The notes below the pieces were generated by a model that worked only from the letters and a program-made list of their open reading frames with translations, had not been told where the DNA came from and made no database searches. A stretch of DNA of 33,744 bases, taken from Roseateles sp. GTDB taxonomy: Bacteria > Pseudomonadota > Gammaproteobacteria > Burkholderiales > Burkholderiaceae_C. The translations under genes and the position numbers were made by a program. The DNA lies in NCBI RefSeq assembly GCF_019237615.1, contig NZ_JAFAGT010000054.1:1-33744 (forward strand). Direction: 5' to 3'. Below are positions 405 through 32,275 of this stretch, one piece after another. Position 1 is the stretch's first letter. Each line of letters opens with the position of its first letter.

Positions 405-1061
405 ATGGTGCCGCCCGCCATGCCCTCCACCACCTCTCCCCGGCTCTGGGACATTTCCCCCACGGTCGCCCCCGATGCACCCATCTTCCCAGGCGACGAG
501 CCCTACGGCCTGCGCTGGACCACCCGCCTGTCGCCCGGCTGCCCGGTCAACCTCAGCGCGATCACGATGTCTCCCCATGTAGGCGCGCACGCTGACGCGC
601 CGCTGCACTACGCCAACGACGCGCCTGCCATCGACGCGGTGCCGCTGGACACCTATCTGGGCCGCTGCCGCGTCATCCACGCCCTGGGCGCCGCGCCGCT
701 GATCACCGTCGAGCACCTGAAGCACGCCGAGGCCGACCTGCCGCAGCGCGTGCTGGTGCGCTGCTGCGAGCGCGCCGACACGGTGTGGAACCCCGCCTTC
801 ACCGCCTACGCCCCCGAGGCCATCGCCTGGCTGGCCGCCCGCGGCGTACGGCTGATCGGCATCGACACGCCCAGCGTGGACCCGGCCGACTCCAAGGTGC
901 TGGACAGCCACCAGCAACTGCGCCGCCTGGACCTGCGCGTGCTGGAGAACCTGGTCCTGGACGAAGTGCCCGAGGGCGACTACGAGCTGATCGCCCTGCC
1001 CCTGAAGCTTCAAGGCGCCTGCGCTTCCCCGGTGCGCGCCATCCTCCGAGAACTTACATGA
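405..1061 (+). CDS. kynB: Kynurenine formamidase KynB
   Basis: This 218-residue protein hydrolyses N-formyl-L-kynurenine to kynurenine and formate, the second step of tryptophan breakdown by the kynurenine pathway. It belongs to the metal-dependent cyclase/KynB family. The family metal-binding pattern HxGxHxDxPxH is intact as H58, G60, H62, D64, P66 and H68, and the N-terminal LWDISP and FPGD segments are typical. The ATG at 405 has an AGG about 8 bases upstream. An ATG at 420 would remove five residues and is equally compatible with family length. The stop overlaps the kynU start as ATGA, so the two are translationally coupled. Function is secure from motif and operon context. Confidence 0.95.
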
Positions 1062-2314
1062 CCTCCAGAGAACAAGCCCTTGCGCTCGACGCGCTCGACC
1101 CGCTCGGCACCTTGCGCGAGCACTTCGCGCTGCCGCCCGGTGTCATCTACCTGGACGGCAACTCCCTCGGTGCCCTCCCCAAGGCCACGCCGGCGCGCCT
1201 CGCCCGGGCCGTGCAGCAGGAATGGGGCGACGGCCTGATCGCGAGCTGGAACAACGCCGGCTGGATCAACATGCCGCGTCGCCTGGGCGACCGCCTGGCG
1301 CCCTGGATTGGCGCGCAGCCCGGCGAGGTGCTGGTGGGCGATTCGACGTCGATCAACCTCTACAAGGTGTTGCATGCAGCGCTTCAGATGCAGCCGCCAG
1401 GGCGGCGCGTGGTGGTGAGCGAGCGCAGCAATTTCCCGACCGACCTCTACATCGCGCAGAGCGTCGTGAGCGACCATGGTGGCGAGCTGGTGCTGGCCGA
1501 CGCACCCGAGGACATTCCGGCCCTGCTCGACGCGCGCTGCGCGGTGCTGATGCTGACGCATGTGAACTACCGCAGCGGCCGCATGCACGACATGGCCGCG
1601 CTGACGCGCCTGGCCCACGAAGCCGGCGCGCTGGCGCTCTGGGATCTGTGCCACAGCGCCGGCGCCGTGCCGGTGGACCTGCGCGGCGCCGACGCCGACT
1701 TCGCCATCGGCTGCAGCTACAAATACCTGAACGGCGGCCCCGGCGCACCGGCCTTCGTGTGGATGCACCCGAGCCACGCAGGCCGTGCCCGCCAGCCGCT
1801 GACCGGCTGGCTGGGCCATGCGGCGCCGTTCGAGTTCGGCACCCACTACCGGCCGGCGGACGGCATCCAGCAGTTTCAGTGCGGCACGCCGGCGGTCCTT
1901 GCGATGACGGCACTGGACGCGTCGCTGGACGTGTTCGACTTGGCGCGCAAGCTCGGTGGCATGGCCGCGCTGCGCGCCAAGTCGCTGGCGCTGACGGAGG
2001 CCTTCATCGCCGCGGTCGACACGCACGTGCCCAGCGCCAGCCTGCAGTCGCCGCGCGAAGCGGCGCTGCGCGGCTCGCAGGTGTCCATCGCGCTGCCGGC
2101 CGAGGTTGACGGCTACGCGGTCATGCAGGCGCTCATCAGCCGCGGCGTCGTCGGCGACTTCCGCGCCGGCGAACCGGGCCTGCTTCGCTTCGGCTTCACG
2201 CCTCTGTACACGCGGCATGTGGACGTGGTGGACGCCGTCGCCCTGCTCGTCGACGTGCTGGCCACCGAGTCCTGGCGCACCCCCGAGTTCCAACGCCGCA
2301 GTGCAGTGACCTGA
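1058..2314 (+). CDS. kynU: Kynureninase KynU
   Basis: This 418-residue PLP-dependent fold-type I hydrolase cleaves L-kynurenine to anthranilate and L-alanine. The N-terminal segment [12 protein letters not shown] matches the family. The segment [11 protein letters not shown] contains the PLP lysine, K222, and FQCGTP and FGFTPLY occur near the expected C-terminal positions. The open frame extends upstream to 785, but that part overlaps kynB. The ATG at 1058 gives the normal family length and overlaps the kynB stop by four bases. The stop overlaps the kynA ATG by one base. Together with kynB and kynA it forms an anthranilate pathway operon; no anthranilate-degrading genes are seen here. Confidence 0.96.
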
Positions 2315-3141
2315 TGAACAAGATCGAACACCACGACGCCCAGCTCGACTTCTCCAAGGACATGAGCTACGGAGACTACCTCCAGCTCGACGCCATCCTG
2401 AACGCGCAGAAGCCACTCTCGCCCGACCACAACGAGATGCTCTTCATCGTGCAGCACCAGACCTCGGAGCTGTGGATGAAGCTGATGCTGCACGAGCTGC
2501 ATGCGGCCGTGGCCCATGTGGCGGACGACAAGCTGCCCGAGGCCTTCAAGATGCTGGCCCGGGTGTCGCGCATCATGGAGCAACTGGTCCATGCCTGGGA
2601 CGTGCTTGCAACGATGACGCCGCCCGAGTACAGCGCCATCCGCCCCTACCTGGCCAGGAGCAGCGGATTCCAGAGCGCGCAATACCGGCGCATCGAATTC
2701 ATGCTCGGCAACAAGAACGCCGCCATGCTCAAGCCCCATGAGCACCGGCCCGACCTGCTGGCCCAGGTGCGCGAGGCCTTCGACGCGCCGTCGCTCTACG
2801 ACGAGGTGCTGAAGCTGATGGCGCGCCGCGGCATCGCGGTGCCGGCCTCGCACCTGGAGCGCGACTGGACCCAGCCCTATGTGGCCGATGACGGCGTCAA
2901 GGACGCCTGGCTGGCCGTCTACCGCTCGCCGCAGCAGCACTGGGACCTCTACCAGATGGGCGAGGAACTGGTGGACCTGGAGGACGCCTTCCGCCTCTGG
3001 CGCTTCCGCCACGTGACAACGGTGGAGCGGGTCATCAGCTTCAAGCGCGGCACCGGCGGCACGGGCGGGGTCAGCTACCTGCGCAAGATGCTGGACGTGG
3101 TGCTGTTCCCGGAGCTGTGGGCGCTGCGAACGGACCTGTGA
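2314..3141 (+). CDS. kynA: Tryptophan 2,3-dioxygenase KynA
   Basis: This 275-residue cytoplasmic haem enzyme opens the indole ring of L-tryptophan with O2 to give N-formylkynurenine, the first committed step of the pathway. Recognisable family segments are [23 protein letters not shown] (distal H48), [14 protein letters not shown] (substrate-binding arginine region near 125) and [11 protein letters not shown] with the proximal haem ligand H233. The C-terminal [13 protein letters not shown] substrate loop is also present. Its ATG overlaps the kynU stop in TGATG, so the B-U-A genes form one tightly packed transcript even though the first enzyme is encoded last. Confidence 0.97.
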
Positions 3142-6390: not shown

Positions 6391-7503
6391 ATGGAAGAGG
6401 TGGAAGTCGCCGTCATCGGCGCCGGGGTCGTGGGGCTCGCAGTGGCCCGCGAGCTGGCGCAGCGCGGGCACGAGGTCGTCGTCATCGAGGCGGCGGGCGC
6501 CATCGGCACGGGCATCTCCGCACGCAACAGCGAGGTCATCCATGCCGGGCTCTACTACCCCGCGGGCAGCCTGAAGGCGCGACTGTGCTTGCGCGGCCGG
6601 CGGCTGCTCTACGATTACTGCGAGGCGCGCGGCATCGCGCACCGACGCTGCGGCAAACTGGTCGTCGCAACGCGCGCGGCCGACCTGCCGCGGCTGCAGG
6701 CATTGGCCGCCCAGGGCGCCGCCAACGGCGTCGACGATCTCGAACTGCTGGACCGCGCGACGCTGCAGGCACTGGAACCGGCGCTGCGGGCCGAGGGCGC
6801 GCTGTCGTCGCCGTCCACCGGCATCGTCGACAGCCACGGGCTGATGACAACCCTGCTGGGCGACGCCGAGCGGGCCGGCGCCGTGCTGGCCCTGGCCAGC
6901 ACGGTGGGCGGCGGTGCGCGCGTTGGCGATGGCTGGCGGCTGCGGGTGGAGGATTTCGAGCTGGGCGCGCGCCGGGTCGTGAACTGCGCCGGCCTGTTCG
7001 CCGGCCAGGTGGCCGAATCGCTGGGCATCGCGGCACCACCGCTGCGCTTTGCGCGCGGCCACTATCTCGCGCTGGCCGGCCGCGCGCCATTCTCGCGGCT
7101 GGTCTATCCACTGCCCGTCGATGGAGGCCTGGGCGTGCACCTGACGCTGGACCTGGGCGGCCAGGCCCGCTTCGGCCCCGACGTGCAGTGGCTGCCGGAC
7201 ACCGACCCGGCCACGCTGGACTACGCCATCGACCCGTCTCTGGCCTCAGCGTTCGAGGCCGAGGTGCGCCACTACTGGCCCGACCTGCCGGCGGGTGCGC
7301 TGGCGCCGGCCTATGCCGGCATCCGCCCCAAGCTGAGCGGCCCGGGCGAGCCGGCGACGGACTTCCGCATCGACGTGCGGCCCGGCCTCGTCAGCCTGTT
7401 GGGCATCGAGTCGCCGGGGCTGACGGCGTCGCTGGCCCTCGCCGAGGTCGTCGCAGAGGTCGTCGCCGGGCGACTCAACCCCGGGCCGACTGCTTCGCGA
7501 TGA
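6391..7503 (+). CDS. lhgO: FAD-dependent L-2-hydroxyglutarate dehydrogenase-like oxidoreductase (LhgO family)
   Basis: This 370-residue DAO-fold flavoprotein begins with a Rossmann FAD motif, [24 protein letters not shown] at about 10-33. It then shows the segment [15 protein letters not shown], the hallmark of the L2HGDH/LhgO family. [18 protein letters not shown] and the C-terminal [10 protein letters not shown] and [13 protein letters not shown] also fit. Family members oxidise L-2-hydroxyglutarate to 2-oxoglutarate and pass electrons to the quinone pool. The exact substrate is inferred, since related 2-hydroxyacid or amine oxidases look alike. The 3' end overlaps the convergent emrA-like gene by 29 bases. 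Confidence 0.85.
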
Positions 7504-8641
7504 TGGCGTCTGCCGCCTGCTCGGCCTGCTGCAGCGGCTGGCTCAGCGCCTGCGTGCTGTAGGCCGCGCTGGCAGGCGCCGGCGCGCCCAGCATGGGGCC
7601 GCCGGTGTCGTGCGTGTCGACGCTCACGTTCATCGACAGGCCCACGCGCAGCGGGTGTTCGCGCAGCTCGGCCGGGTCCAGCGCGATGCGCACCGGCACG
7701 CGCTGCACGACCTTGATCCAGTTGCCCGTCGCGTTCTGCGCCGGCAGCAGCGAGAACGCGCTGCCCGTGCCGGGCGACAGGCCCAGCACCTTGCCGTGGT
7801 ACTCGACCTTGCCGCCGTAGGTGTCGGCTTCCAGCGCGGCCGGCTGGCCGACGCGCAGGTTGCGCAGCTCCGACTCCTTGAAGTTCGCCTCCACCCACAG
7901 CTGCTCCAGCGGCACGATGGACATCAGCGCCGTGCCCGGGATCACGCGGCTGCCCACCTGCACGCTGCGCTTGCCGACATAGCCGGACACCGGCGACACC
8001 ACCGCGTTGCGGCGCAGCGCCAGCCACGCCTGCACATAGTCGGCGCGTGCGGCCAGCACGCTGGGGTGCTGGGCCAGCGCCACGCCCTGCACGCCGGCGC
8101 GGGCGGCATCGAGCTGGCGCAGCGCCACGTCCAGCGCGGCCTGCGCGGTCTTGACGGCCTGGCGCGCGTGGGCGATCTCCTCGGCCGGCAGCGTGTCGTC
8201 GGCCGCCAGCGGCTGGCGGCGGGCCAGGTCGTCCTGGGCGCGCTTCAGGTCTAGCCGGCGCAGCTCGACGCCGGCCTCGTACTGCGGCACGCCGGCATAG
8301 CGCTCGCGCAGCTGGCGCACGGCGCCGCCCAGGCGGGCCTCGGCCTGTGCCAGCACGACCTCGGCGTCGACCGGGTCCAGCTTCACCAGCTCGGCGCCGG
8401 CCTGCACCAGCTGGGTCTCGTCGGCACGGATCTCGGCGACGTTGCCGCTGACCTGCGAGGACAGCGTGACCATATTGCCGCCGACGTAGGCGTTGTCGGT
8501 GGTCTCGCGCTTGGACAGCACCAGCGCGGCATAGACGGCATACAGCAGGCCGGCGACGACGAACAGCGTCGTGATGCCGACGAGGGCCCGGCGGCGCTTG
8601 CGCTCGAGCGGGGGTGACGTGGGGGCTTCGGTCGTGGACAT
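7475..8641 (-). CDS. emrA: EmrA/HlyD-type membrane fusion protein of a tripartite efflux pump
   Basis: This 388-residue periplasmic adaptor has a short cytoplasmic N-terminus, one transmembrane helix at about 19-42, then the [10 protein letters not shown] segment typical of EmrA. A first half-lipoyl segment, a long alpha-helical hairpin (about 90-200) and a second lipoyl segment with [20 protein letters not shown] follow, then the beta-barrel region with [12 protein letters not shown]. It links the inner membrane EmrB-like pump to the outer membrane factor. The ATG at 8641 is three bases after the outer membrane factor stop, so it is the last gene of the marR-emrB-OMF-emrA operon. The Ala/Gln-rich tail after about 350 is variable in the family. 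Confidence 0.92.
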
Positions 8642-8644
8642 GAT

Positions 8645-10123
8645 TCAGTTCCGCGTGATCTGGAGGGGCGCCTGGGCACTGGCCTCGGCATGGAAGCCGC
8701 CGCCCAGGGCTTGTGTGAGGGTCACTTCGGTCTGCAGGCGCTCCCTGGCCAGCTGCAGCTCGGCCTGATGGGCGCGCAGCACGGCCAGGTCCGCCTGCAC
8801 CGTGGTGGCGCGGTCGGCCAGGCCCTGGCGCCGGCGGGCCTCACTGCTGCGCTGCTGGGCCTCGGTCAGCGCTGCGGCCTCGTGCTGCGCGCCAGCCTGC
8901 TCCGCCAGGCCCTGCAGCGCGCTGGCGGCCTGGGCCACGTCGCGCACGGCGTCCAGCACGCGCTGGTCGTAGTCGGCGATCAGCTCGTCGCGTGCGCTGC
9001 GCGCGCCGCCGAGCTGGCCCTTCAGCGTGCCGGTGTTGAACAGCGGCAGCGCCAGCGAGGGGCCCAGCAAGAAGGTGCGGCTGGCGGTTTTCAGCAGGCC
9101 GGGCAGTGTCAGCGAGTCCAGGCCGATGGAGCCGGCAAGGTTGATGTCGGGATAGAAGGCCGCCTTGGCCGCGTCGACGCGGTTCATGGACGCCTCGACG
9201 CGCCAGCGCGCGGCCTGCAGGTCGGGCCGACGGGCCAGCAGCTCGTAGCCGAGGTGCGCCGGCAGCGTAGCCCGGCCGGCGGGCAGCGGCCGCGCCCGCA
9301 GCGCCGCCACTGCGTCCTCGCCCGGGCCCAGCAGCGCGCGCAGCGCCTCGCGCTGGCCGATGGCAGCGCTCCCGGCCTCGGCGATGCGCCCGCGCAGCTC
9401 GGCCAGCCGGGCGGCCTCGGTGCGCGGCTCATCGGCGGCGGCCAGGCCATGCGCGACGCGGCGGGCGCGGTCGTCCACCAGTTGCTGCTGCGCCGCGGCC
9501 TGCTCGCGCAAGTTGGCAGCCAGCGCCCACAGGCTTTGCAGCTCAAAGTAGCTGCGCGCCACCGAGCCGGCCAGGGCCTGGCGCACCTGGGCGGCCTCGG
9601 CGCGGCGCGCAAAAGCCTCGCCGGCGGCCGCGGCGACCTGGGCGCGTTGGCGGCCCCACAGATCGAAGTCGTAGCGGGCCTGCAGCCCGACGCTGAAGTC
9701 GTTGAACGTGCCGCCGCCTATGGGCGCAGGGAAGAGGCCGTTGGCCGAGTAGCGCTGGCGGTTGACGTCGGCCGTCGCGCCGGACTCGACCCCGGCGGCG
9801 GCGCGGCTGACAACCAGGGCCGACAGGGCCGCGTCGACGCGGGCGGCCGCGGCGGCCAGCGTCGGGCTGTCCTGCAGCGCGTGGTCGACGAGGGCGTCGA
9901 GCTGGGCGTCGCCGTAGCGCGTCCACCAGCGGTCGCCGGGCCAGGCCCGGTCACCGGCAAGGCGGATGTCGTCGGGCAGTTCGGCGCCGACGGCATCGGG
10001 CTGCGCCACGGCATGCGGCTCGGGCGGGACGCTGACGCAGCCGCCCAGCGTCGCGGCCGACAGCGAGGCCAGCAGCGCCGTCAGCGCGAAGGAATGCCGC
10101 AGGGGATGGGGGCGGGGCAGCAT
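8645..10123 (-). CDS. NodT/OprM-type outer membrane efflux lipoprotein
   Basis: This 492-residue outer membrane factor is the exit channel of the efflux system. It begins with a lipoprotein signal peptide whose lipobox, LGGC, ends in C29, the predicted lipid-attachment residue. The repeated TolC-type halves follow: WWTRYGDAQLDALVDHAL and later LLARRPDLQAARWRVEASMNRVDAAKAAFYPDINL, both family signatures. The frame stays open upstream to 11788, but that part lies under emrB. The ATG at 10123 follows GGAGTGAGC and gives the signal peptide, so it is the real start. The emrB stop is two bases upstream. Confidence 0.93.
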   Translation of the reverse strand: MLPRPHPLRHSFALTALLASLSAATLGGCVSVPPEPHAVAQPDAVGAELPDDIRLAGDRAWPGDRWWTRYGDAQLDALVDHALQDSPTLAAAAARVDAALSALVVSRAAAGVESGATADVNRQRYSANGLFPAPIGGGTFNDFSVGLQARYDFDLWGRQRAQVAAAAGEAFARRAEAAQVRQALAGSVARSYFELQSLWALAANLREQAAAQQQLVDDRARRVAHGLAAADEPRTEAARLAELRGRIAEAGSAAIGQREALRALLGPGEDAVAALRARPLPAGRATLPAHLGYELLARRPDLQAARWRVEASMNRVDAAKAAFYPDINLAGSIGLDSLTLPGLLKTASRTFLLGPSLALPLFNTGTLKGQLGGARSARDELIADYDQRVLDAVRDVAQAASALQGLAEQAGAQHEAAALTEAQQRSSEARRRQGLADRATTVQADLAVLRAHQAELQLARERLQTEVTLTQALGGGFHAEASAQAPLQITRN

Positions 10124-10125
10124 GC

Positions 10126-11688
10126 TCACTCCATGGCCGCGTGTTGGGCGGCCGGGTCGGGTTGGGCCCGGGACGGGCGGATCAGCAGCAGCAGCGGGAT
10201 GACGGCCAGCGTGACGAGGAACATCATCCAGAAGTCGTCGATGTAGGCCAGCATCGTGGCCTGGCGCGTGATCTCGGCGTTCAGCAGCGTCGCGCCGGCG
10301 ACGCCGCCCGAGCCGTAGACGGCCGTCACCGTCGGGTCCTGCAGCGTGGGGTTGGCGATGTTGATGTGCTCGGTGAGGGACGCATGCGCCACCTGCACGT
10401 TGCGCGTCAGGAAGGCCTGCACCAGCGCAATGCCCACGCTGCTGCCGATATTGCGCACCAGGCTGTAGATGGCCGTGCCGGCGGCGCGCATCTCGGGCGC
10501 CAGCGTCGTGAACGCGGCCGTGCTCAGCGGCACGAACACCAGGCCCAGGCCTATGCCCTGGATGATGCCGGGCCAGACGATGTCGCTGCGCGACAGCACC
10601 AGCGTGTACTGACTCATCTGCCACAGCGAGAAGGCGGTGAGCGAGAAGCCCACGGTCAGCAGCACACGCACGTCCACGCGGCCGACCAGCTTGCCGACGA
10701 CCAGCATGGACAGCATGGTGCCGAAGCCGCTGGGCGCCGTGACCAGGCCTGCGATGGTGGCCGGATAGCCCATCAGGCCCTGCAGCATGGACGGCGTCAG
10801 CGCCCGCGTCGCGAACAGCACCATGCCCACGATGGCGGCGAATAGCAGGCCGCTCACGTAGTTGGCGTTCTTCAGCAGCCGGTAGTCGAAGAAGGACTTG
10901 CCGGCCGGGCGCAGCGCCGTGTGCGCGACCAGGTAGGCCACGCTGATGGCCAGCAGCACGGCCTCGACCCAGGTCTCGGTCGACGCGAACCAGTCGTTCT
11001 GCTCGCCACGGTCCAGCAGCATCTGCAGCGCGCCTATGGCCAGCGACAGCGTCGCGAAGCCGAACACGTCGAAGCGCATGCTGCGCGCGGCCCGGGCGCC
11101 GGGAATGAACTTCCAGATGCCGTACAGCGCCAGGGCGCCTATGGGCACGTTGATGAAAAACACCCAGCGCCAGTCGTAGGCGTCGGTCAGCCAGCCGCCC
11201 AGCGTAGGCCCGAGGATGGGGCCGATCATGACGCCCATGCCCCAGACGGCCATGGCCTGGCCATGCTTCTCGCGCGGGTTGATGTCCAGCAGCACGGCCT
11301 GCGACAGCGGCACCAGCGCGGCGCCGAACACGCCCTGGAGGAAGCGCGCCAACACGATCTCGGTGAGCGAACCGGACAGGCCGCACAGCACCGATGCGAG
11401 CGTGAAGCCGCCCACCGAGACGAGGAAGATGTTCTTCTGGCCGAAGCGGTCGCACAGCCAGCCGGTCAGCGGCATCGTGATCGCCGAGGCGACGATGAAC
11501 GAGGTCAGCACCCAGGTGATCTGGTCCTGCGACGCCGACAGGTTGCCCTGCATGTGCGGCAGCGCGACGTTGGCGATGGTGCCGTCCAGCGCCTGGATGG
11601 TGGTCGCCAGCATGATCGACAAGGTGATCATGACGCGGTTGAGATCGGGCGCCGGCCGCGCGGCGCCCGGCATGGCGGCGGTGGTCAC
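10126..11688 (-). CDS. emrB: EmrB/QacA-type MFS drug efflux transporter (DHA2 family)
   Basis: This 520-residue inner membrane proton antiporter has about 14 hydrophobic helices. Diagnostic segments are LDGTIANVALPHMQGNL in TM1, LCDRFGQKNIFLVSVGGF (motif A), and GPILGPTLGGWLTDAYDWRWVFFINVPIG (motif C and the following loop), all characteristic of EmrB. The GTG at 11688 overlaps the marR stop as GTGA, giving translational coupling; an internal ATG at 11673 is the alternative start. It works with the adaptor and outer membrane factor downstream. The substrate is unknown, and hydrophobic drugs or uncouplers are usual for the family. Confidence 0.94.
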   Translation of the reverse strand: MTTAAMPGAARPAPDLNRVMITLSIMLATTIQALDGTIANVALPHMQGNLSASQDQITWVLTSFIVASAITMPLTGWLCDRFGQKNIFLVSVGGFTLASVLCGLSGSLTEIVLARFLQGVFGAALVPLSQAVLLDINPREKHGQAMAVWGMGVMIGPILGPTLGGWLTDAYDWRWVFFINVPIGALALYGIWKFIPGARAARSMRFDVFGFATLSLAIGALQMLLDRGEQNDWFASTETWVEAVLLAISVAYLVAHTALRPAGKSFFDYRLLKNANYVSGLLFAAIVGMVLFATRALTPSMLQGLMGYPATIAGLVTAPSGFGTMLSMLVVGKLVGRVDVRVLLTVGFSLTAFSLWQMSQYTLVLSRSDIVWPGIIQGIGLGLVFVPLSTAAFTTLAPEMRAAGTAIYSLVRNIGSSVGIALVQAFLTRNVQVAHASLTEHINIANPTLQDPTVTAVYGSGGVAGATLLNAEITRQATMLAYIDDFWMMFLVTLAVIPLLLLIRPSRAQPDPAAQHAAME

Positions 11689-12119
11689 AGGCTGGCCTCG
11701 ACCTTGGACTGCAACTCCTCCAGCAGCGCCGTGGCGGCCTGCAGGCGCTCGCGGTCGATGCCGGCCAGCAGTTCCTTGCGATAGCCATCGGCCGCCGTGC
11801 GCACCTTGGCGTAGAGCTGCTGGCCAGCCTCGGTCAGCACCACATGCTTGATGCGGCGGTCAGTCTCGGACGGCACGCGTCCGACCAGCCCCAGCTTGAC
11901 GAGCCGGTCCACCAGGCTGACGACCGACGGCCCTTCGACGCCCAGGCGGTTGGCAAGCTCGATCTGCGACAGCGGCTCGCGGGACTTGGCGATGTTGGCA
12001 ATGGCCATCCAGCCGGCCTGGCCCACGCCCTGGTCCTTCAACCTGCGATCGATGGCCTGGCGCCAGATGCGGGCGGTGTTATGCAGCGCCAACGAGAAGC
12101 GCTCTTCGGTGGAAGGCAT
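11685..12119 (-). CDS. MarR-family repressor of the efflux operon
   Basis: This 144-residue winged-helix regulator has the recognition region LSQIELANRLGVEGPSVVSLVDRLVKLGLVGR at about 50-82 and the wing segment SETDRRIKHVVLTEAG at about 84-99. It is the first gene of the efflux operon and its stop overlaps the emrB GTG. By analogy with other MarR-emrAB operons it probably represses its own promoter until a phenolic or drug ligand binds. A 13-base palindrome 25 bases before its ATG is the likely operator. The ligand cannot be deduced. Confidence 0.92.
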   Translation of the reverse strand: MPSTEERFSLALHNTARIWRQAIDRRLKDQGVGQAGWMAIANIAKSREPLSQIELANRLGVEGPSVVSLVDRLVKLGLVGRVPSETDRRIKHVVLTEAGQQLYAKVRTAADGYRKELLAGIDRERLQAATALLEELQSKVEASL

Positions 12120-12238: not shown

Positions 12239-14494
12239 TCAGATCGCGCAGGCGGCATCCGCGCCCGCCGGCGGCCTCGGCCACAGCGCCAGGCCGCCGC
12301 CCAGGCTCCAGGCCTGCCCATGGCCCAGGCGGCGCAGCGCCTGGGCCGCCTGGGCGCTGCGGTTGCCGCTGCGGCAGAAGAACACCACCGGCGTGCCGGC
12401 CGGCAGCGCCAGCCAGCGGCCCAGCGCATCGGGCAGGCCGGACAGCGCCACGGCCTCGCGCCGCACTGCGCCGCCCAACTCGGGTGCCTGGCCCAGGCGC
12501 TGCTCGTAGGGCTCGCGCACGTCGACGAGCAGCAGGTCCGGATGCCCGCCCAGCAGGTTGCGCAGGCCTTCCGGGCTGAGTTCGCTGGCCACCAGCGGGC
12601 AGCCGCTGTCGATGCGCGCGCCGCAGGCGACGGTCTGGTACTCGGTCAGCGCCAGGCCCTGCTCCAGCCGCGCCTTGGCGGCAGCGAAGCCGGCGTCGTC
12701 CAGGCGGCCCGCCAGCACGTCGGCCAGCAGCGGCTGGGCCGCGCATTCGACGGCCAGCGTGGTGGCGAAGCGGTCGTCGTAGTCGTGACCGGGCAGCAGC
12801 AGGAGCTGCGGGCCGACGGCCTGCGCCAGCCGGCGCAGCGACGCGCCATAGGCCCGCGGCGCGCTCTGCGCGAAGTCACTGCGCCCAAGCGCACCGGGCA
12901 TCACCGTGTCGCCGACGAAGGCCAGGCGCGGGCCGCCGCCCGGCTTGCCTTCGTCTTGCAGCAGATAGGCCGTCGAGTCCTGCGTATGGCCAGGCAAGGC
13001 CAGGCGCGTCAGCCGCAAGGCGCCCAGCTCGACGGCATCGGCGCCGTGCGGCCAGCCGAGCGCGTCCACGTCGCCACGGGCCTTCTCGACCGCCGCCACC
13101 AGCGCCGGTGCCGACGAGGCATGGTCGCCATGGCTGTGCGTGTCCAGCACGGCGGCGAGTTCGTAGTCCTGGCAGCGCAGCCACTGGGCCAGTCGCCCGG
13201 TCAGCTCGGGCAGCGGGTCGATGACGACGGCGCGGCGGCTTGCGGCATCGGCCAGCAGGTAGCAGCAGGCGCCATCCACGATGAAACGCGTCAGGCCATC
13301 GGCCGGCAGGGCCTGGCCGGGGGCGCTTGGATCGAGGCAGCTCTCGCGCAGCGATTCGCCGCAGACGCGGATGCGCGCACAGGCCTCGTCGATGAAGGCA
13401 CGGTCCGCCACCGGGCCGAAGGACAGGCGCACGGCCGAAGCCGTCTGCCAGCCAGGCAGGCCCATGGCCTCCAGAACGTAGCTGGGCTGGGCCTTGGATG
13501 CGCTGCAGGCCGAGCCGCCGCTGACACGCAGCTCAGCCGCGTCGAACAGGTCCAGCAGCAGCTTGGAGCTCAGGCCCGGCACGGCGAAGTTCAGCGTGGT
13601 CGGCAGGCAGGCCTCGGGCGGCGCGTTGAAGACCATGCCAGGGAAGGCCTTCTGCAGCGCGGCCGCCAACTGGCCACGGTAGGCGACGAGGGTGGCGTGG
13701 TCGCGGAAACTGCCGCCCTCCTCCAGCGCGGCCAGCACGGCGCCCAGCGCGGCAATGCCGGACATGTTCTCCGTACCCGCGCGCAGCGCGCCCTCCTGGC
13801 CGCCGCCGGCCAGCAGCGCCGTGAATGGCGCGCCGTCGCGCACGTACAGCAGGCCTATGCCCTTGGGCGCATAGAGCTTGTGGCCGGAGAAAGGCGCGTA
13901 GTCGATGCGTCGCTCGGCCAGCCGCAGCGGCAGCTTGCCCAGCGCCTGCACGCCGTCCACCATCCACAGCGCGGTACTGCCGGCCAGTGCTGCCGCGATG
14001 CCGTCCAGGTCGCTGATGACGCCGGTCTCGTTGTTGGCCGCCATCGTGCAGACCAGGCCCGCGCGCGGCGCATGCTCGCGCAGCCAGGCCAGGTCATGGC
14101 GGCCGTCGCGGCCGACGGGAATGGCCAGCACCTGCAGGTTCAGCCCCAGCAGCGCGTTCCAGTGCCGGATCGCCTCCGGCACGGCCTTGTGCTCGGTCGC
14201 GCCGTACAGCAGCAGCTCTGGCCGCTCGGCATGGTCGCGCAGCGCGCTCAGGGCCGACAGCACCGCCGTCTGTATACCCTCGGTCGCGCCGCTGAGGAAC
14301 AGCAGCCGGCCGCCATCCGCGCCCAGCACGCGGCGCGCGCGGGCGCGCACGCCGTCCATCAGCGCCCTCGCCTTCAGGCCGGTGCTGTGGATGCTGCTGG
14401 GGTTGCCGAAGTCTTCGGCCATCGCGGCCAGAGCAGCCTCGCGGGCCTGCGGTAGCACCGGCGTGGTGGCATTGGCGTCGAGATAGATTTCCAT
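12239..14494 (-). CDS. Three-domain fusion: cysteine desulfurase, ETHE1-like persulfide dioxygenase, rhodanese
   Basis: This 751-residue protein joins three sulfur enzymes. Residues 1-385 are a NifS/IscS-type PLP cysteine desulfurase, with YLDANATTPV at the start, the PLP lysine K206 in FSGHKLYAPKG, and catalytic C330 in SGGSACSASKAQPSY. Residues about 400-630 are a metallo-beta-lactamase fold of the ETHE1/persulfide dioxygenase type: THSHGDH (H453, H455, D457, H458), PGHT (H503), GDT (D529), GRSDF, and LPGHDYDD (H570). H453, H503 and D529 match the iron ligands of ETHE1. Residues about 635-745 are a rhodanese with active loop CRSGNRS (C707). The predicted path is cysteine to enzyme persulfide, then low-molecular-weight persulfide, then sulfite and thiosulfate. 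The start is the ATG at 14494, matching family N-termini; no good ribosome site is visible. An ATG at 14533 would add 13 residues. A DecR-like regulator is divergent. Confidence 0.9.
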   Translation of the reverse strand: MEIYLDANATTPVLPQAREAALAAMAEDFGNPSSIHSTGLKARALMDGVRARARRVLGADGGRLLFLSGATEGIQTAVLSALSALRDHAERPELLLYGATEHKAVPEAIRHWNALLGLNLQVLAIPVGRDGRHDLAWLREHAPRAGLVCTMAANNETGVISDLDGIAAALAGSTALWMVDGVQALGKLPLRLAERRIDYAPFSGHKLYAPKGIGLLYVRDGAPFTALLAGGGQEGALRAGTENMSGIAALGAVLAALEEGGSFRDHATLVAYRGQLAAALQKAFPGMVFNAPPEACLPTTLNFAVPGLSSKLLLDLFDAAELRVSGGSACSASKAQPSYVLEAMGLPGWQTASAVRLSFGPVADRAFIDEACARIRVCGESLRESCLDPSAPGQALPADGLTRFIVDGACCYLLADAASRRAVVIDPLPELTGRLAQWLRCQDYELAAVLDTHSHGDHASSAPALVAAVEKARGDVDALGWPHGADAVELGALRLTRLALPGHTQDSTAYLLQDEGKPGGGPRLAFVGDTVMPGALGRSDFAQSAPRAYGASLRRLAQAVGPQLLLLPGHDYDDRFATTLAVECAAQPLLADVLAGRLDDAGFAAAKARLEQGLALTEYQTVACGARIDSGCPLVASELSPEGLRNLLGGHPDLLLVDVREPYEQRLGQAPELGGAVRREAVALSGLPDALGRWLALPAGTPVVFFCRSGNRSAQAAQALRRLGHGQAWSLGGGLALWPRPPAGADAACAI

Positions 14495-14614
14495 GGTGCG
14501 AGGAGCGGCGGCGGGGAAAGCGGTGTGGTGCATTCTGGCAAGTCGCGCACGAAAACCGATTGCGAAATCCGGCTCGCGTCGCCACAACGTGAGCAACAGA
14601 TGCCTCACATAATT

Positions 14615-14634
14615 GAATCCATGAAATTGGATTC
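14615..14634. promoter_or_regulatory. Inverted repeat at the regulator start, possible operator
   Basis: GAATCC at 14615-14620 and GGATTC at 14629-14634 are exact inverted repeats eight bases apart, spanning the ATG of the Lrp/DecR-like gene. The position suits autoregulation, and the divergent desulfurase promoter lies nearby. A second weaker dyad, GATT-GCGA-AATC, lies at 14558-14569. Function is inferred. Confidence 0.35.
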
Positions 14635-15088
14635 CATAGACATACGGATTCTAGAAATCCTGCAGCAGGACGCAGAACTGCAGGTCGCCGAGGTCGCGCA
14701 GCGCGTGGGCCTGTCCACGACGCCCTGTTGGCGGCGTATCCAGCGGCTGAAGGAGACCGGCGTCATCACGCGCCAGGTGGCGCTGCTGGACGCGCAGAAG
14801 GTCAACGTCGGCGTCACCGTATTCGTCTCCGTGCGCACGAGCACGCACAGCCAGGAGTGGTTCGACACCTTCAAGGCCACGGTGCAGGCCATTCCCGAGG
14901 TCGTCGAGTTCTACCGCATGAGCGGTGATGTGGACTACCTTCTGCGCGTGGTGGTGCCCGACATTGCTGCGTACGATCGTGTCTACAAGCGCCTCATCGC
15001 CGGCACGCAACTGCACGACGTCAGCTCCAGCTTCGCCATGGAAGAACTCAAGCTGACGACCGCGCTGCCACTGAGCTACGTGGCCTGA
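14621..15088 (+). CDS. Lrp/AsnC regulator resembling the cysteine sensor DecR/CyuR
   Basis: This 155-residue regulator has an N-terminal winged HTH (about 1-60) and a C-terminal RAM ligand-binding domain. It resembles E. coli DecR (YbaO/CyuR) along its length: STTPCWRRIQRLKETGVI, QVALLDAQKVNVGVTVFV, HSQEWFDTF, YRMSGDVDYLLRV, YKRLI, and SSFAMEELKLTTALPL all have close counterparts as I remember that protein. DecR activates cysteine detoxification genes in response to cysteine. That fits the divergent cysteine desulfurase fusion, which I take to be its target. The ATG at 14621 gives the family length; an ATG at 14600 would add seven residues. Neither has a strong ribosome site. Confidence 0.88.
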   Translation: MKLDSIDIRILEILQQDAELQVAEVAQRVGLSTTPCWRRIQRLKETGVITRQVALLDAQKVNVGVTVFVSVRTSTHSQEWFDTFKATVQAIPEVVEFYRMSGDVDYLLRVVVPDIAAYDRVYKRLIAGTQLHDVSSSFAMEELKLTTALPLSYVA

Positions 15089-22187: not shown

Positions 22188-24959
22188 TCAGAACTTGTAC
22201 TGGGCGTTCACATAGAAGCTGCGGCCACGCGGGTCGCCGTAGGTCGGGTCCCAGGTGACCTGGAAATAACGCGACTGGTTGGTGAACGGCGGCGCGCTGT
22301 CGGCCACGTTGAGGATGCCGGCGCGCAGGCGCAGCGCAGGCGTGAAGCGGTAGCTGGCCGCCACATCCCACAGTGAATAAGCCTTCACGTCGCGGTCGTT
22401 CCACTCCGGAACGGCCAGGCCGGGCGTGTTCTGGTCACGGTAGCCGGACATGTAGTTGTTCGTCACGGTCAGGCCGAAGTCACCAAGGTCCCAGTCCACC
22501 GTCAGCTTGTGGCGCCAGCGCTGGACAGCCTTGTCGTCGCGGAACTTGCCTAGGCCATCAACCATGCCGGAGCGCGGATCGGTGTTGAACTTGTATTCGG
22601 TCACCAACGTGCCGCCCAGGCTCGCGCCGAAACGGCCGTAGGCCGTGGGCTCGCCGCGCCAGGTCAGCGACACGTCCACGCCCGCCGTGTTGAGCTTGCC
22701 GCGGTTCTCCTTCTTGACGGTCACGAAGTCGACGGAGCCGTCGGAGAAGCGTTTCACGATGGCCGGGTCGTTGTAATAGACCGGGTTGGTGAAGATGGTT
22801 TCCTCGCCGATCTCCGAAATGATGTCGGTCTTGCGGATAGCCCAGTAGTCGATGCTCCCGTTCCAGTTGCGAGACGGCTCGAACACCACGCCGAGGTTGA
22901 ACTGCTTGGACTTCTCTGGCTTGAGGTTGGGGTTGGCGTAGCGGTCCACCGCCATCTGCGCCACCTCACCCGAGACCGGATCTTTGACGAAGCTGGCCGT
23001 GATACCGGAGCGCAGCGGACGAAACAGCTCCGACACTGTAGGCGCGCGGAAGCCTGTGCCATAGGAGGCGCGTGCCAGCAGCGCGCGGTCGGGGCGGAAG
23101 CTCAGGCCGATCTTGGGGTTGGTCGTGTTGAGCTTAGGTGAGGTGATCCTGGTGGCCTCGTCGTAGATGCCGTCATAGCGGTCGTGACGGATCGCGAACT
23201 GCCCCTCCCACTGTTTGGTGAATGGCGCGCTCAGCTCGGCGAAGGCGCCCATCACATTGCGTTGATGGTTCGTGTCCGCCAGCAATGGGCCGGAACTGGA
23301 TCGGTCGTTATTGACGTCGTTGCTCTTCAAGGCATCGGTGGCGCCGAACCTCAGCTTCTCGCGGCGCAGCTCGGCGCCCACGGCCAGCATCAGATCGCCG
23401 CCGCCGAGTGCAGCCAGCGCGCGCGTCAGCTTGCCGTCGACACTGGTGCTGCTGCCTTCGGCCATCCGAGCAGCGCCGTCGATGCGGATGGAGTTCATGA
23501 AGGCGCGGCCGGCGCTGGAATCATTGGCCCGCTGGAAGGGGTTGTACTGCCCCGCCTTGATGCCGGCCTCCAGCCTGCTCAGCGACACCCAGCCATCGAG
23601 ATCGGTGTCGGTGGCCTTGTTCACGCTGTGGTTCAGCGCGGCGTCGTAGTCCCATTCGCCGAAGCGGCCAACCGCGCCAGCCACGACACGCGTCGCCGCG
23701 CTCTCCACTCGACTGACGCGCTTGCCTGCGTCCTCCAGGCGGAAACGGAAATCCACCGGGCCGGTGACGCCTGTCACGGCTTGCAGTGAGGCCGGCAGCG
23801 TGATGCCCGAAGCAGTGCGGAATCGCGCCGTGGCCGGTGAAGCTGAATAGTCGGTGTCAGTCTTGGCAAACAGCGCCTCGAGGAAGACCTGATGGTCTTC
23901 GCTCACCTGGAACGTTGCGCGGCCGATGACGCTGGCTTTGTCGGAGGCGGGGTAGATCTCGGAGCCCGCGACATAGTCATAGGAGCAGCCCTCGCGCCCT
24001 CCCAGGCCGAGCGACTGCACCGAGTTCGGGTTGAGGCCACCTGTGCAGGACGCCTTGCCGAAGTTCACGCGGCGCGAGCCGGAGTTGGCGCCGCCCGGAT
24101 TCCAGGTGCCGTTGGCGTTGGAGCCCTTCAACGCCGTGGCGGGGTTGGCCAGCACGAAGGCGTTCAATGCCGCCAGCTGAGCGGCGGTGAGGTCGACGTT
24201 GGCTGGAAAGCTGTTGCTGGAGGTCTGCGCGGGCAGGCGGCCAGGCAGGTCGTTGTCCTGGATGAACTTGCGCTGGCTGGCATCCAGCGCGTCGAGCTTC
24301 TGCACGTCCACCGCGGCGAACACGTTGAAGCGGTCCTTGGCGAGGTCTCCCCATCCGCCCGAGACGCTGAACGTCGTCTTGCCCGCACCGCCATCTTCGG
24401 TGCGCAGTGCATAGACGCTGAGGTCGGCGCCTGCATAGTCCTTGCGCGTGATGAAGTTGATCACACCGCCCATCGCGTCGGTGCCGTAGATGGCGGAGGC
24501 ACCGTCTTTCAACACCTCCACGCGCTGGATGGCGCCAGCGGGAATGTTGTTCAGGTCCACACCCGCGTTGTCGCCGGGACTGGCGAAATTGGCCAAGCGA
24601 CGGCCGTTCAGCAGCACCAGCGTGCTGGACACACCCAGGCCGCGCAGGTTGGCGCCGTTGAAGCCACGCTGCGCGCCCGACTGGTCGGTGATGCTGGCGC
24701 CATCGGTCAGGCCGCCAACGTTGGACGTGATCTTTTGCAGCAGTTCGGCCGCGGTCGTCACGCCAGCCTTGTCGATGTCCTGGCGCTTGATGATGTCCAC
24801 CGGTAGCGCAGCCTCGCCGTCAAGACGCTTGATGCTGGAGCCGGTGATCTCCACGCGCTCGAGCTTCTGCTCCTGTGCATGGGCTGTCGGCATGGACGCG
24901 ACGCTCAGCAGCGCGGCATGCGCCAGCACGGTGAGCGTGAAGGAACGGGTTGTTGTCAT
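22188..24959 (-). CDS. TonB-dependent outer membrane receptor
   Basis: This 923-residue protein has a signal peptide (about 1-27, cleaved after AHA). A TonB-box-like LERVEITGS is followed by a plug domain (LPVDIIKRQDIDKAG, LRGLGVSSTLVLLNGRRLANF, IQRVEVLKDGASAIYGTDAMGGVINFITRK). A 22-strand barrel ends in FYVNAQYKF, the usual terminal aromatic. The ATG at 24959 has GAGG six bases upstream and gives the signal peptide; the frame extends further but without a signal. It belongs to the large receptor group used by gammaproteobacteria and betaproteobacteria for peptides, sugars and siderophores. It diverges from the cyanophycinase operon, so import of cyanophycin fragments is a reasonable inference. 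Iron or metal chelates remain possible. Confidence 0.9.
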   Translation of the reverse strand: MTTTRSFTLTVLAHAALLSVASMPTAHAQEQKLERVEITGSSIKRLDGEAALPVDIIKRQDIDKAGVTTAAELLQKITSNVGGLTDGASITDQSGAQRGFNGANLRGLGVSSTLVLLNGRRLANFASPGDNAGVDLNNIPAGAIQRVEVLKDGASAIYGTDAMGGVINFITRKDYAGADLSVYALRTEDGGAGKTTFSVSGGWGDLAKDRFNVFAAVDVQKLDALDASQRKFIQDNDLPGRLPAQTSSNSFPANVDLTAAQLAALNAFVLANPATALKGSNANGTWNPGGANSGSRRVNFGKASCTGGLNPNSVQSLGLGGREGCSYDYVAGSEIYPASDKASVIGRATFQVSEDHQVFLEALFAKTDTDYSASPATARFRTASGITLPASLQAVTGVTGPVDFRFRLEDAGKRVSRVESAATRVVAGAVGRFGEWDYDAALNHSVNKATDTDLDGWVSLSRLEAGIKAGQYNPFQRANDSSAGRAFMNSIRIDGAARMAEGSSTSVDGKLTRALAALGGGDLMLAVGAELRREKLRFGATDALKSNDVNNDRSSSGPLLADTNHQRNVMGAFAELSAPFTKQWEGQFAIRHDRYDGIYDEATRITSPKLNTTNPKIGLSFRPDRALLARASYGTGFRAPTVSELFRPLRSGITASFVKDPVSGEVAQMAVDRYANPNLKPEKSKQFNLGVVFEPSRNWNGSIDYWAIRKTDIISEIGEETIFTNPVYYNDPAIVKRFSDGSVDFVTVKKENRGKLNTAGVDVSLTWRGEPTAYGRFGASLGGTLVTEYKFNTDPRSGMVDGLGKFRDDKAVQRWRHKLTVDWDLGDFGLTVTNNYMSGYRDQNTPGLAVPEWNDRDVKAYSLWDVAASYRFTPALRLRAGILNVADSAPPFTNQSRYFQVTWDPTYGDPRGRSFYVNAQYKF

Positions 24960-25054
24960 GAAGACCTCGGGTAAATGGCGGATAGGCGGCGAACGAACGA
25001 CCGCCTTGCGATTCACTCTAGGGAGGGCTTCGGGACCTTGCCTATGGGGTTTCG

Positions 25055-25075
25055 GCGTGCAAGTCGCTTGCACGC
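25055..25075. promoter_or_regulatory. Perfect dyad between the TonB receptor and cyanophycinase
   Basis: GCGTGCAAG and CTTGCACGC are exact nine-base inverted repeats separated by TCG. The dyad is 95 bases upstream of the receptor ATG and 149 bases upstream of the cyanophycinase ATG. Related CGCTTG pieces recur at about 25086 and 25103. A regulator site shared by both promoters is likely; which regulator binds is unknown. Confidence 0.5.
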
Positions 25076-25224
25076 AAATGCGCGTCGCTTGGCCGCAATC
25101 GCGCTTGGCGCGTGCACCACGGCCTCACCTTCTTCTTGCGCAGATGCGACATGGAATTGCGTGCGCTGACCCGTCGACGTGCAACCCGCTGTCATGCGGC
25201 AAGGGGCGCTGACAAGATGACTTC

Positions 25225-26460: not shown

Positions 26461-26477
26461 TTCACTCCATTGTCTCC

Positions 26478-27596: not shown

Positions 27597-27603
27597 GGCA
27601 GCC

Positions 27604-28992: not shown

Positions 28993-29005
28993 GAACATCG
29001 CGGCG

Positions 29006-32274: not shown

Positions 32275-32275
32275 T

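What the first reader, a model, noticed from the sequence alone, without database searches (positions are those of the whole stretch)
12239..14494. Cysteine desulfurase, persulfide dioxygenase and rhodanese in one polypeptide
All three active sites are intact by eye: PLP K206 and C330; H453, H503, D529 and H570; and C707 in CRSGNRS. Persulfide dioxygenase-rhodanese fusions are established, but I know of no characterised protein with a cysteine desulfurase fused in front of them. The order suggests channelling: cysteine gives a persulfide, which the middle domain oxidises to sulfite, and the rhodanese makes or uses thiosulfate. This would let one protein dispose of excess cysteine without releasing H2S.
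Basis: partly seen in the sequence, partly recalled or inferred. Interest (0 to 1): 0.8.

Follow-up and report, generated by a model that had tools for sequence, protein, structure and literature searches.

The report
Cysteine-degrading enzyme with three fused domains
One bacterial protein joins an enzyme that pulls sulfur off cysteine to two enzymes that carry and probably oxidise that sulfur, next to a regulator of the cysteine-sensing kind, which suggests a self-contained way to get rid of excess cysteine, although the sulfur-oxidising part has apparently been lost repeatedly in its relatives.

Summary
It is no artefact: 19 of 20 genomes of the genus carry it, and full-length relatives occur in Variovorax, Comamonas, Acidovorax and Pseudoalteromonas. 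My searches listed no paper on this three-domain protein, but a two-domain CD-Rhd relative is characterised (Selles 2022): without its Rhd cysteine, CD kcat falls tenfold with GSH, and the authors propose a persulfide relay. So the likelier order is CD to Rhd to glutathione to PDO, not CD to PDO to Rhd. New here: (1) a divergent Lrp-family neighbour, the best DecR match of 10 in this genome, has a homologue in the same position at 69 of 118 loci; DecR/CcdR control cysteine-inducible cysteine degradation. (2) CD and Rhd active-site residues are kept in 118 of 118 homologues, but the PDO is degenerate in 25 and absent in 24, in separate lineages. Best reading: a regulated cysteine-disposal enzyme with a CD-Rhd core and an optional O2-dependent PDO route to sulfite. 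Activities are inferred.

The parts
12239..14494 (-). CDS of the 751-aa fusion protein: cysteine desulfurase, persulfide dioxygenase, rhodanese
   Evidence: Open frame from ATG to stop; Pfam domains; conserved frame in relatives
13343..14494 (-). Cysteine desulfurase domain, residues 1-384; PLP lysine K206 (13877-13879), catalytic C330 (13505-13507) in a loop that aligns without gap to the long loop of NFS1
   Evidence: Aminotran_5 E 1e-51; NFS1/NifS alignments; K206 and C330 in 118 of 118 homologues
12680..13303 (-). ETHE1-type persulfide dioxygenase domain, about residues 398-605; Fe ligands H453, H503, D529; T452, H455, D457, H458, R538, D540, H570, Y572 also kept
   Evidence: Alignment to ETHE1 and BpPRF; residues tested by mutagenesis in AcPDO (PMC6060420 passages); fold search of the C-terminal model
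12275..12577 (-). Rhodanese domain, about residues 640-740; catalytic C707 (12374-12376) in CRSGNRS
   Evidence: Rhodanese E 3.3e-10; C707 and R712 in 118 of 118 homologues
14621..15088 (+). Divergent Lrp/AsnC-family regulator, DecR-like (start taken at the ATG of MKLDS; the listed frame runs from 14525)
   Evidence: HTH_AsnC and AsnC_trans_reg; 48.7% identity to E. coli DecR against 36.5% to E. coli Lrp; best of 10 DecR matches in this genome, 158 against 115 bits for the next; homologue divergent and adjacent at 69 of 118 loci
14589..14607 (-). Imperfect palindrome TGAGGCATCTGTTGCTCAC (TGAG...CTCA) in the divergent intergenic region; candidate operator of the Lrp-like regulator
   Evidence: Lies at the offset where relatives have TTGAGAA-N5-TTCTCAA: best match at offset 10 or 11 in 36 of 67 intergenic regions, at most 8 in 100 shuffles; the window's copy matches only 8 of 14 positions; pattern chosen after seeing the data

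Best explanation
A cysteine-disposal enzyme, probably switched on by excess cysteine through the divergent DecR-like Lrp regulator. The CD domain (a PLP dimer by homology) converts L-cysteine to alanine and leaves a persulfide on C330. The mobile C330 loop hands the sulfur to C707 of the rhodanese, which passes it to glutathione as GSSH. The Fe(II) PDO domain oxidises GSSH with O2 to sulfite and GSH, and sulfite is removed by other enzymes (this genome has a protein with a sulfite-oxidase-type Mo-co_dimer domain). Net: cysteine + O2 gives alanine + sulfite with little free H2S. The rhodanese could also use or form thiosulfate. Where the PDO has decayed, the same CD-Rhd core would hand persulfide or H2S to other acceptors. 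Shown: gene, domains, residues, conservation, neighbour, PDO presence and absence. Proposed from experiment for a relative: CD to Rhd relay. Inferred: cysteine induction, PDO activity of this domain, the order of transfer, net sulfite.
For: All catalytic residues of the three domains present. Eleven residues discussed in the AcPDO mutagenesis paper have their counterpart here (passages; mapped through the ETHE1 alignments, AcPDO itself not aligned). The two-domain relative CD-Rhd has both activities, and changing its Rhd cysteine cuts CD kcat about tenfold with GSH or beta-mercaptoethanol (PMC8931425). CD and Rhd active-site residues invariant in 118 of 118. A homologue of the DecR-like neighbour is divergent and adjacent at 69 of 118 loci (44 of 68 intact, 20 of 24 without PDO, 4 of 24 degenerate, plus L061), on the same strand at 5 more. 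DecR/CcdR/YbaO mediate cysteine-inducible cysteine degradation, with ccdR adjacent to ccdA in Pantoea (PMC5423876, passages). Middle domain under purifying selection in the window's clade, median dN/dS 0.22. C-terminal model's six best PDB matches are BpPRF chains, then a bacterial MBL-rhodanese protein and ETHE1. Possible sulfite sink: one Mo-co_dimer protein over cut-off (found in 2 of 14 control genomes). Two TauE proteins are no evidence by themselves: all 14 controls have one.
Against: No activity or regulation was measured for any three-domain member that I know of. The PDO is degenerate in 25 and absent in 24 of 118 homologues, so sulfite cannot be the obligatory product of the family. 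With DTT as acceptor, the Rhd-cysteine variant of CD-Rhd kept its CD catalytic efficiency. The regulator was not found within 2.5 kb upstream of 19 of 68 intact loci (three of these, L040, L086 and L147, have a homologue on the 3' side), nor within about 6 kb of any of the five distant gammaproteobacterial members. The neighbours were counted by similarity to the window's regulator (51% identity or more), not each tested as DecR-like. The candidate operator is poorly matched in the window itself (8 of 14 positions). Genomes with PDO-less fusions have a stand-alone PDO of the one type searched less often, not more often (4 of 10 degenerate and 11 of 24 without, against 32 of 35). The genome also has two further proteins that read as stand-alone PDOs, so the fused PDO is probably not the cell's only one. 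Cysteines and further GSH-binding residues found important in AcPDO were not compared.
Confidence: 0.6

Rival explanations
1. One reading: the CD persulfide goes straight to the PDO, is oxidised to sulfite, and the rhodanese then combines sulfite with a second persulfide into thiosulfate.
For: Domain order in the chain. Rhodaneses can run in that direction (recalled, no call). The rhodanese loop CRSGNRS resembles CRAGGRS of BpPRF.
Against: For the two-domain relative the Rhd is proposed as direct acceptor of the CD, and its Cys-to-Ser change costs tenfold in kcat with GSH; the CD-Rhd pair persists in 24 of 118 homologues that have no PDO at all, so the CD-Rhd hand-over does not need the PDO. 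PDOs act on GSSH, a small diffusible persulfide.
Confidence: 0.15
2. A sulfur-supply enzyme: a very active CD-Rhd that delivers persulfide for thiolation, Fe-S clusters or protein persulfidation; the PDO only removes excess persulfide.
For: The two-domain relative drives transpersulfidation of roGFP2 from cysteine. CD and Rhd are invariant and the PDO is dispensable. A TusA-family gene lies near the Pseudoalteromonas THAF3 locus.
Against: The only widely conserved neighbour that I found is the DecR-like regulator; most other neighbour clusters were lineage-limited and were not identified, so an acceptor gene is not excluded. The genome has another cysteine desulfurase-like match elsewhere (G000:C29, 32% identity). 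At E 1e-90 or better only 61 of 399 genomes of the family have a relative, so it is not a housekeeping supplier.
Confidence: 0.2
3. Thiosulfate use: the Rhd makes GSSH from thiosulfate and the PDO oxidises it, as proposed for BpPRF in sulfur assimilation (title seen in reference lists; details recalled); the CD merely adds a second persulfide source.
For: Residues 410-739 match BpPRF as one stretch and the C-terminal model's top PDB hits are BpPRF. The relative CD-Rhd has thiosulfate sulfurtransferase activity.
Against: That activity was about eightfold lower than its CD activity, and thiosulfate hardly served transpersulfidation. The conserved neighbour is of the DecR type, and DecR-type regulators respond to cysteine. 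Neighbour genes were not annotated well enough to exclude a thiosulfate gene.
Confidence: 0.1
4. The middle domain is mainly structural (a spacer or docking domain) even where its residues look intact.
For: In 25 homologues it has lost most motifs, yet in four of the seven degenerate groups measured its dN/dS is 0.14-0.24 (0.31-0.82 in the other three; one to three pairs each), and it often keeps a CC motif (19 of 25) and GWP (20 of 25).
Against: In 69 homologues the ligands are kept, including distant members at 34-43% identity in this domain (of these L153 has lost H458); the count is partly by construction, since the class was defined by motifs. A structural role alone does not need H453, H503, D529, R538 and Y572.
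Confidence: 0.1

Closest known systems
CD-Rhd fusion of Pseudorhodoferax sp. Leaf274 (WP_056898193.1; Selles 2022, PMC8931425; later used in the CyReB cysteine sensor, PMC12319549, passages)
   Same: Same CD and Rhd domains in the same order. Loci L124, L126, L127 and L148, with the published cysteine numbers 334 and 466, have CD domains 77-78% identical to the window's and a divergent homologue of the window's regulator.
   Different: It has no persulfide dioxygenase domain. On the CD tree this class (L124, L127, L129) groups with an intact three-domain protein (support 96/89), so it looks like a derived form that lost the middle domain. I did not hold the published sequence itself.
Persulfide dioxygenase-rhodanese fusion BpPRF (PDB 5ve3-5ve5; Motl 2017, title seen in reference lists only; the paper is not held)
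   Same: PDO then Rhd, aligned as one stretch over residues 410-739; best fold matches of the C-terminal half.
   Different: BpPRF has no CD domain. Here the PDO has THSHGDH in place of TH-hydrophobic-HADH, and a GWP motif and a CC pair that the aligned ETHE1 and PRF sequences lack; only 26-27% identity in the fold alignment, where the RMSD over both domains is large (16 A).
Cysteine-inducible cysteine degradation by DecR/CcdR with CcdA/CdsH or YhaM (PMC5423876, passages)
   Same: A DecR-type Lrp-family regulator controlling, and in Pantoea adjacent to, a cysteine-degrading enzyme.
   Different: Those enzymes release H2S, pyruvate and ammonium. This one would release alanine and sulfite (or persulfide). 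Induction not tested here.
Sulfurtransferase/dioxygenase Blh (NCBIfam NF040641) and CstB-type PDO-rhodanese proteins
   Same: PDO and rhodanese domains in one chain (CstB recalled).
   Different: NF040641 scores 27.7 bits against a cut-off of 625; no CD domain in them (recalled).

Membership tests
Cysteine desulfurase, group I (NifS/IscS-like) | Aminotransferase class V fold with PLP lysine and catalytic cysteine | tested here: met
   PF00266 176.5 bits over cut-off 21.5; K206 and C330 in 118 of 118; best fold matches NFS1 and NifS-like proteins
Cysteine desulfurase, group I (NifS/IscS-like) | Long mobile catalytic loop | tested here: met
   Loop GGSACSASKAQPSYVL aligns without gap to NFS1 SGSACTSASLEPSYVL; residues 329-335 have pLDDT under 50
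Cysteine desulfurase NifS or IscS equivalog | Score over NCBIfam equivalog cut-off | tested here: not met
   TIGR03402 261.8 against 530.75; TIGR02006 185 against 643.2
Persulfide dioxygenase (ETHE1-type) | 2-His-1-carboxylate iron ligands and the surrounding essential residues | tested here: met
   T452, H453, H455, D457, H458, H503, D529, R538, D540, H570 and Y572 correspond to AcPDO T56, H57, H59, D61, H62, H113, D130, R139, D141, H171 and Y173 (through ETHE1, AcPDO not aligned). Its cysteines and other GSH-binding residues were not compared.
Persulfide dioxygenase (ETHE1-type) | Motif T-H-hydrophobic-H-A-D-H as given for types I and II | tested here: inconclusive
   Window has THSHGDH: all His and Asp kept, hydrophobic and Ala positions changed; distant members L143, L144 and L152 have THGHADH
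Persulfide dioxygenase (ETHE1-type) | Oxidises GSSH to sulfite with O2 | not testable with these tools
   Needs purified protein
Active rhodanese | Catalytic cysteine in the active-site loop | tested here: met
   PF00581 40.7 bits over 22.2; CRSGNRS, C707 in 118 of 118
PDO-rhodanese fusion (BpPRF-like) | PDO followed by rhodanese in one chain | tested here: met
   but only as the C-terminal half of a larger protein
CD-Rhd fusion (Pseudorhodoferax type) | CD followed directly by Rhd | tested here: not met
   A PDO domain lies between them
DecR/CcdR regulators (the neighbour) | Lrp/AsnC architecture and closest relation to DecR | tested here: met
   best of 10 in the genome. Tested for the window's regulator only, by similarity; no tree made.
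DecR/CcdR regulators (the neighbour) | Cysteine-responsive control of the adjacent gene | not testable with these tools
   Only position, conservation and a candidate palindrome

The most novel reading that the evidence does not exclude
A third class of DecR-type cysteine-resistance enzyme: one protein that turns cysteine and O2 into alanine and sulfite by an internal relay from CD to Rhd to PDO, so that excess cysteine is cleared without an H2S burst. Its PDO module has been switched off many times, leaving catalytically dead but in part still constrained pseudo-PDO domains and, at the end of that path, the two-domain CD-Rhd enzymes already known.
Probability: 0.45. Interest if true: 0.68.

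Novelty: new variant of a known kind. Interest (0 to 1): 0.55.

Why it matters
It would be a natural example of coupling a persulfide-making and a persulfide-burning enzyme in one chain, and it suggests a physiological role for the CD-Rhd enzyme, whose authors worked without known partners (PMC8931425): DecR-type regulated cysteine detoxification. It also gives a set of natural variants with intact, dead and missing PDO domains in close relatives, so the contribution of sulfur oxidation to cysteine tolerance can be tested directly. The one annotated full-length homologue that I saw is labelled only as an aminotransferase class V-fold PLP-dependent enzyme, so the PDO and rhodanese parts are easily missed.

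Tried and rejected
Sequencing artefact or chance frame: rejected, since 19 of 20 genomes of the genus carry the frame and 61 of 399 genomes of the family hold a relative at E 1e-90 or better.

Glyoxalase II or beta-lactamase identity for the middle domain: rejected. It carries GRSDF and GHDY as ETHE1 does, not GCGRLF and HEY as a protein of this genome that reads as GloB, and fold matches to PDOs rank above glyoxalase II.

Compensation of PDO loss by a stand-alone PDO: tested with one stand-alone PDO-like protein of this genome as query over 70 genomes at E 1e-40; the result went the other way. Only one PDO type was searched, the 'full-length' genomes were taken by match span, and the genomes are related, so this is a weak negative.

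Conserved operon partners: clustering of neighbouring frames over 118 loci gave no widely conserved partner except the regulator and frames that by position are its shadows. The other clusters were lineage-limited and were not identified.

The structure models come without coordinates in the Python box, so distances between the three active sites were not measured and channelling was not tested. The whole-model fold search listed only CD-type hits in its first 50 rows, so the C-terminal half was modelled apart.

Classes of the middle domain: a first regex version was too strict and was replaced. L061 falls in the degenerate class by motif though its metal ligands are kept. L087 (cut by a contig end) was counted as 'none' in the first tree and left out of the counts and of the second tree; L079 (gene in two frames) was left out of the trees and counts. 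One search used several mislabelled positions; the counts quoted are those. Eight loci with identical proteins were dropped as duplicates. A first dN/dS script failed after its first group, where other domain borders gave 0.12, 0.18 and 0.23 for CD, middle and Rhd; one search replaced it, without the group L096-L098.
Full report
WHAT IS THERE. The stretch 12239-14494 on the minus strand encodes a 751-aa protein. Pfam finds Aminotran_5 (3-366), Lactamase_B (411-468) and Rhodanese (641-738), each over its curated cut-off. Against PDB sequences, residues 1-360 match NifS-, IscS- and NFS1-type chains (best E 3.8e-51), residues 410-739 match the PDO-rhodanese fusion BpPRF as one stretch (7.3e-21) and 410-591 match ETHE1-type proteins (alignments). 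Of the 25 NCBIfam models shown (29 matched) none reaches its cut-off (NifS 261.8 of 530.75; Blh 27.7 of 625), so none of these names the fusion. H453, H503 and D529 are the iron ligands; H570 matches a second-sphere histidine. Of the PDO residues discussed in the mutagenesis paper on AcPDO (PMC6060420, passages seen) I compared eleven: T56, H57, H59, D61, H62, H113, D130, R139, D141, H171, Y173. All eleven have their counterpart here, mapped through the ETHE1 alignments; the cysteines and the type-specific GSH-binding residues were not compared.

STRUCTURE MODELS. AlphaFold2 on 44 family sequences gives mean pLDDT 85.9 and pTM 0.84; the catalytic loop of the CD (329-335) is below 50, as expected for a mobile loop. 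The C-terminal half alone (37 sequences) gives 88.4 and 0.89, and its six best PDB matches are BpPRF chains, followed by two chains of an Alicyclobacillus MBL-rhodanese protein and by ETHE1 proteins. RMSD over both domains to BpPRF is large (16 A), so the two domains are placed differently or the placing is unsure; the best ETHE1 matches have RMSD 3.5-3.8 A.

WHO HAS IT. In a search of the window's genome and 99 relatives, 19 of 20 genomes of the genus have a full-length match (79-100% identity in 17, 72% in G017, 68% in G012; the exception, G011, is 83% complete). Named relatives include Roseateles and Pelomonas (88-89%, so the window is probably of this group), Variovorax, Comamonas, Acidovorax, Ramlibacter, Ideonella, Inhella, Rubrivivax and Aquabacterium (80 best loci kept of 411). 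In an even draw of the family, 61 of 399 genomes (25 of 141 genera) hold a relative at E 1e-90 or better: by match span, 27 full-length, 11 with a broken middle, 24 CD plus Rhd without a middle (my count over 62 places; G120 has two, and G275 is split into two rows). The 11 and the 24 were then checked on the fetched proteins. An even draw of the class gave none but the window itself in 369 genomes at E 1e-70; one of the phylum gave 4 others in 299 at E 1e-65, 48-54% identity. Three Pseudoalteromonas plasmids of 0.8-1.3 Mb carry it at 44-47%.

THE MIDDLE DOMAIN IS OPTIONAL. I examined 118 proteins (120 non-identical ones less L079, interrupted, and L087, cut by a contig end). Most were chosen as best matches, so the proportions are not prevalences. 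K206, C330, H102, D180, Q183, R660, C707 and R712 are kept in 118 of 118. By motif, 69 have an intact or nearly intact PDO, 25 a degenerate one and 24 none. In the degenerate class H453 is kept in 5 of 25, H503 in 3, D529 in 7, Y572 in 0; in the intact class in 69, 69, 69 and 66 of 69 (the last is partly by construction because the class was defined by motifs). On a tree of the CD domain, rooted on distant gammaproteobacterial members, the labels need 16 changes over 119 rows in a quick tree (four labels, L087 still counted as 'none' there) and 12 over 86 rows and three labels in a careful one with long branches and near-copies left out (bootstrap not quite settled). The five distant members have the middle domain (L153 in part decayed), and pairwise distances in CD and middle domains correlate (r 0.94 over 69 proteins). 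So inheritance of all three parts together with repeated loss is the simplest account. The root and the direction are inferred, though, and the deepest Burkholderiales branches are PDO-less with an unresolved order. The class with cysteines at 334 and 466, the numbers published for the Pseudorhodoferax CD-Rhd, groups with an intact Inhella protein (96/89).

SELECTION. Nei-Gojobori dN/dS medians in the window's clade (11 proteins, 55 pairs) are 0.12 for CD, 0.22 for the middle and 0.14 for Rhd; the middle gives 0.19, 0.17 and 0.26 in three other intact groups. In seven degenerate groups the middle gives 0.14, 0.24, 0.17, 0.15, 0.49, 0.82 and 0.31 (one to three pairs each), so some dead domains look constrained and some relaxed. 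The motif GWP is in 68 of 69 intact and 20 of 25 degenerate middle domains, and a CC pair (C410-C411 in the window) in 64 of 69 and 19 of 25. I saw neither in the aligned ETHE1 and PRF sequences. They may mark contacts with the other domains.

THE NEIGHBOUR. Divergent from the gene, 126 bp away, lies an Lrp/AsnC-family regulator. It is 48.7% identical to E. coli DecR and 36.5% to E. coli Lrp. Of 10 matches to DecR in this genome it is the best by far (158 bits, next 115). Within 2.5 kb upstream, a homologue (51% identity or more to the window's) is divergent and adjacent at 69 of 118 loci (44 of 68 intact, 4 of 24 degenerate, 20 of 24 PDO-less, plus L061), on the same strand at 5, not found at 41, and not decidable at 3 with short upstream sequence. 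Of the 41, L040, L086 and L147 have one on the 3' side. It is the only widely conserved neighbour that I found. In 67 intergenic regions a palindrome TTGAGAA-N5-TTCTCAA, perfect in three Variovorax, scores above mononucleotide shuffles (mean best match 8.97 of 14 against 7.76, SD 0.09), and its best match sits at the same offset in 36 of 67 (shuffles: mean 2.9, maximum 8 in 100). The pattern was chosen from the same data and relatives are not independent. The window's copy (14589-14607) matches 8 of 14 positions. DecR, CcdR and YbaO mediate cysteine induction of cysteine-degrading enzymes in enterobacteria, with ccdR next to ccdA in Pantoea (PMC5423876, passages).

HOW IT PROBABLY WORKS. For the two-domain relative, Selles 2022 (PMC8931425, passages and one section) report CD activity 20-600 times that of other desulfurases, thiosulfate sulfurtransferase activity, and a tenfold fall of CD kcat with GSH or beta-mercaptoethanol when the Rhd cysteine is changed (with DTT the CD activity was not significantly altered), and propose the Rhd as a persulfide relay. 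PDOs use GSSH. So the relay CD (C330) to Rhd (C707) to GSH to PDO (Fe) to sulfite needs no new chemistry. A review notes that a PDO speeds the rhodanese TSTD1 by consuming its GSSH (PMC10135228, passage). The genome holds a protein with a sulfite-oxidase-type Mo-co_dimer domain near a PDO-like protein and a TauE protein on contig C70 (TauE is in all 14 control genomes, so it says little). All of this is inference for the present protein.

AGAINST. PDO loss or decay in 49 of 118 means that sulfite cannot be the family's obligatory product. Loss is not made good by a stand-alone PDO of the type searched: 32 of 35 genomes with a full-length fusion have one, 4 of 10 with a degenerate and 11 of 24 without the domain; G120, which has both forms, has none. 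Degenerate forms mostly lack the adjacent regulator (17 of 24 not found, 2 undecidable).

NOVELTY. Searches of the open library listed no paper on a CD-PDO-Rhd protein; some searches showed only the top of longer lists. I read passages of three reviews on these families and saw listings or abstract starts for the rest, so absence from print is not proved; most subscription papers are not held. The CD-Rhd and PDO-Rhd halves are each known. Verdict: a new variant of a known kind, well conserved, with a plausible physiological role that is directly testable.

Noticed in passing
window 7475-12119 (-): MarR-family regulator, MFS transporter, outer-membrane efflux protein and HlyD/CusB-type adaptor in a row on the minus strand, just downstream: looks like a tripartite efflux operon under a MarR regulator.
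   Followed up: no
window 788-3138 (+): Kynureninase (itself a class V aminotransferase) and tryptophan 2,3-dioxygenase in adjoining frames.
   Followed up: no
window 25225-33442: Peptidase S51, AstE/AspA-type protein, DcuC carrier, AraC regulator, two AstA-type frames, a second Lrp/AsnC regulator (31852-32274 minus) and ornithine cyclodeaminase: probably an arginine/ornithine degradation region.
   Followed up: no
L061, L080, L082, L083, L085, L088-L092, L095-L100, L106, L112, L114-L118, L120, L145: The 25 middle domains classed degenerate: most PDO ligands lost (not in L061), yet some groups show dN/dS 0.14-0.24 and many keep the CC and GWP motifs: candidate pseudo-enzyme domains of unknown role.
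   Followed up: partly
L035 and L091; L072 and L083: Roseateles toxinivorans DSM 16998 and Ramlibacter sp. WS9 each carry two copies, one with an intact and one with a degenerate PDO.
   Followed up: no
G000 contig C70, about 24125-30890: A Mo-co_dimer (sulfite-oxidase-type) protein, a stand-alone PDO-like protein and a TauE-family protein lie within about 7 kb in the window's genome.
   Followed up: no
L153, 4448-4666: A TusA-family sulfurtransferase gene lies two genes upstream of the fusion in Pseudoalteromonas sp. THAF3.
   Followed up: no
L079: In Variovorax sp. E3 the fusion gene lies in two frames (CD residues 1-130 apart from the rest): a frameshift or an assembly error.
   Followed up: no
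family alignment, window residues 372 and 378: Two cysteines in the last helix of the CD domain, C372 (115 of 118) and C378 (113 of 118), are nearly invariant in all three architectures; role unknown.
   Followed up: no
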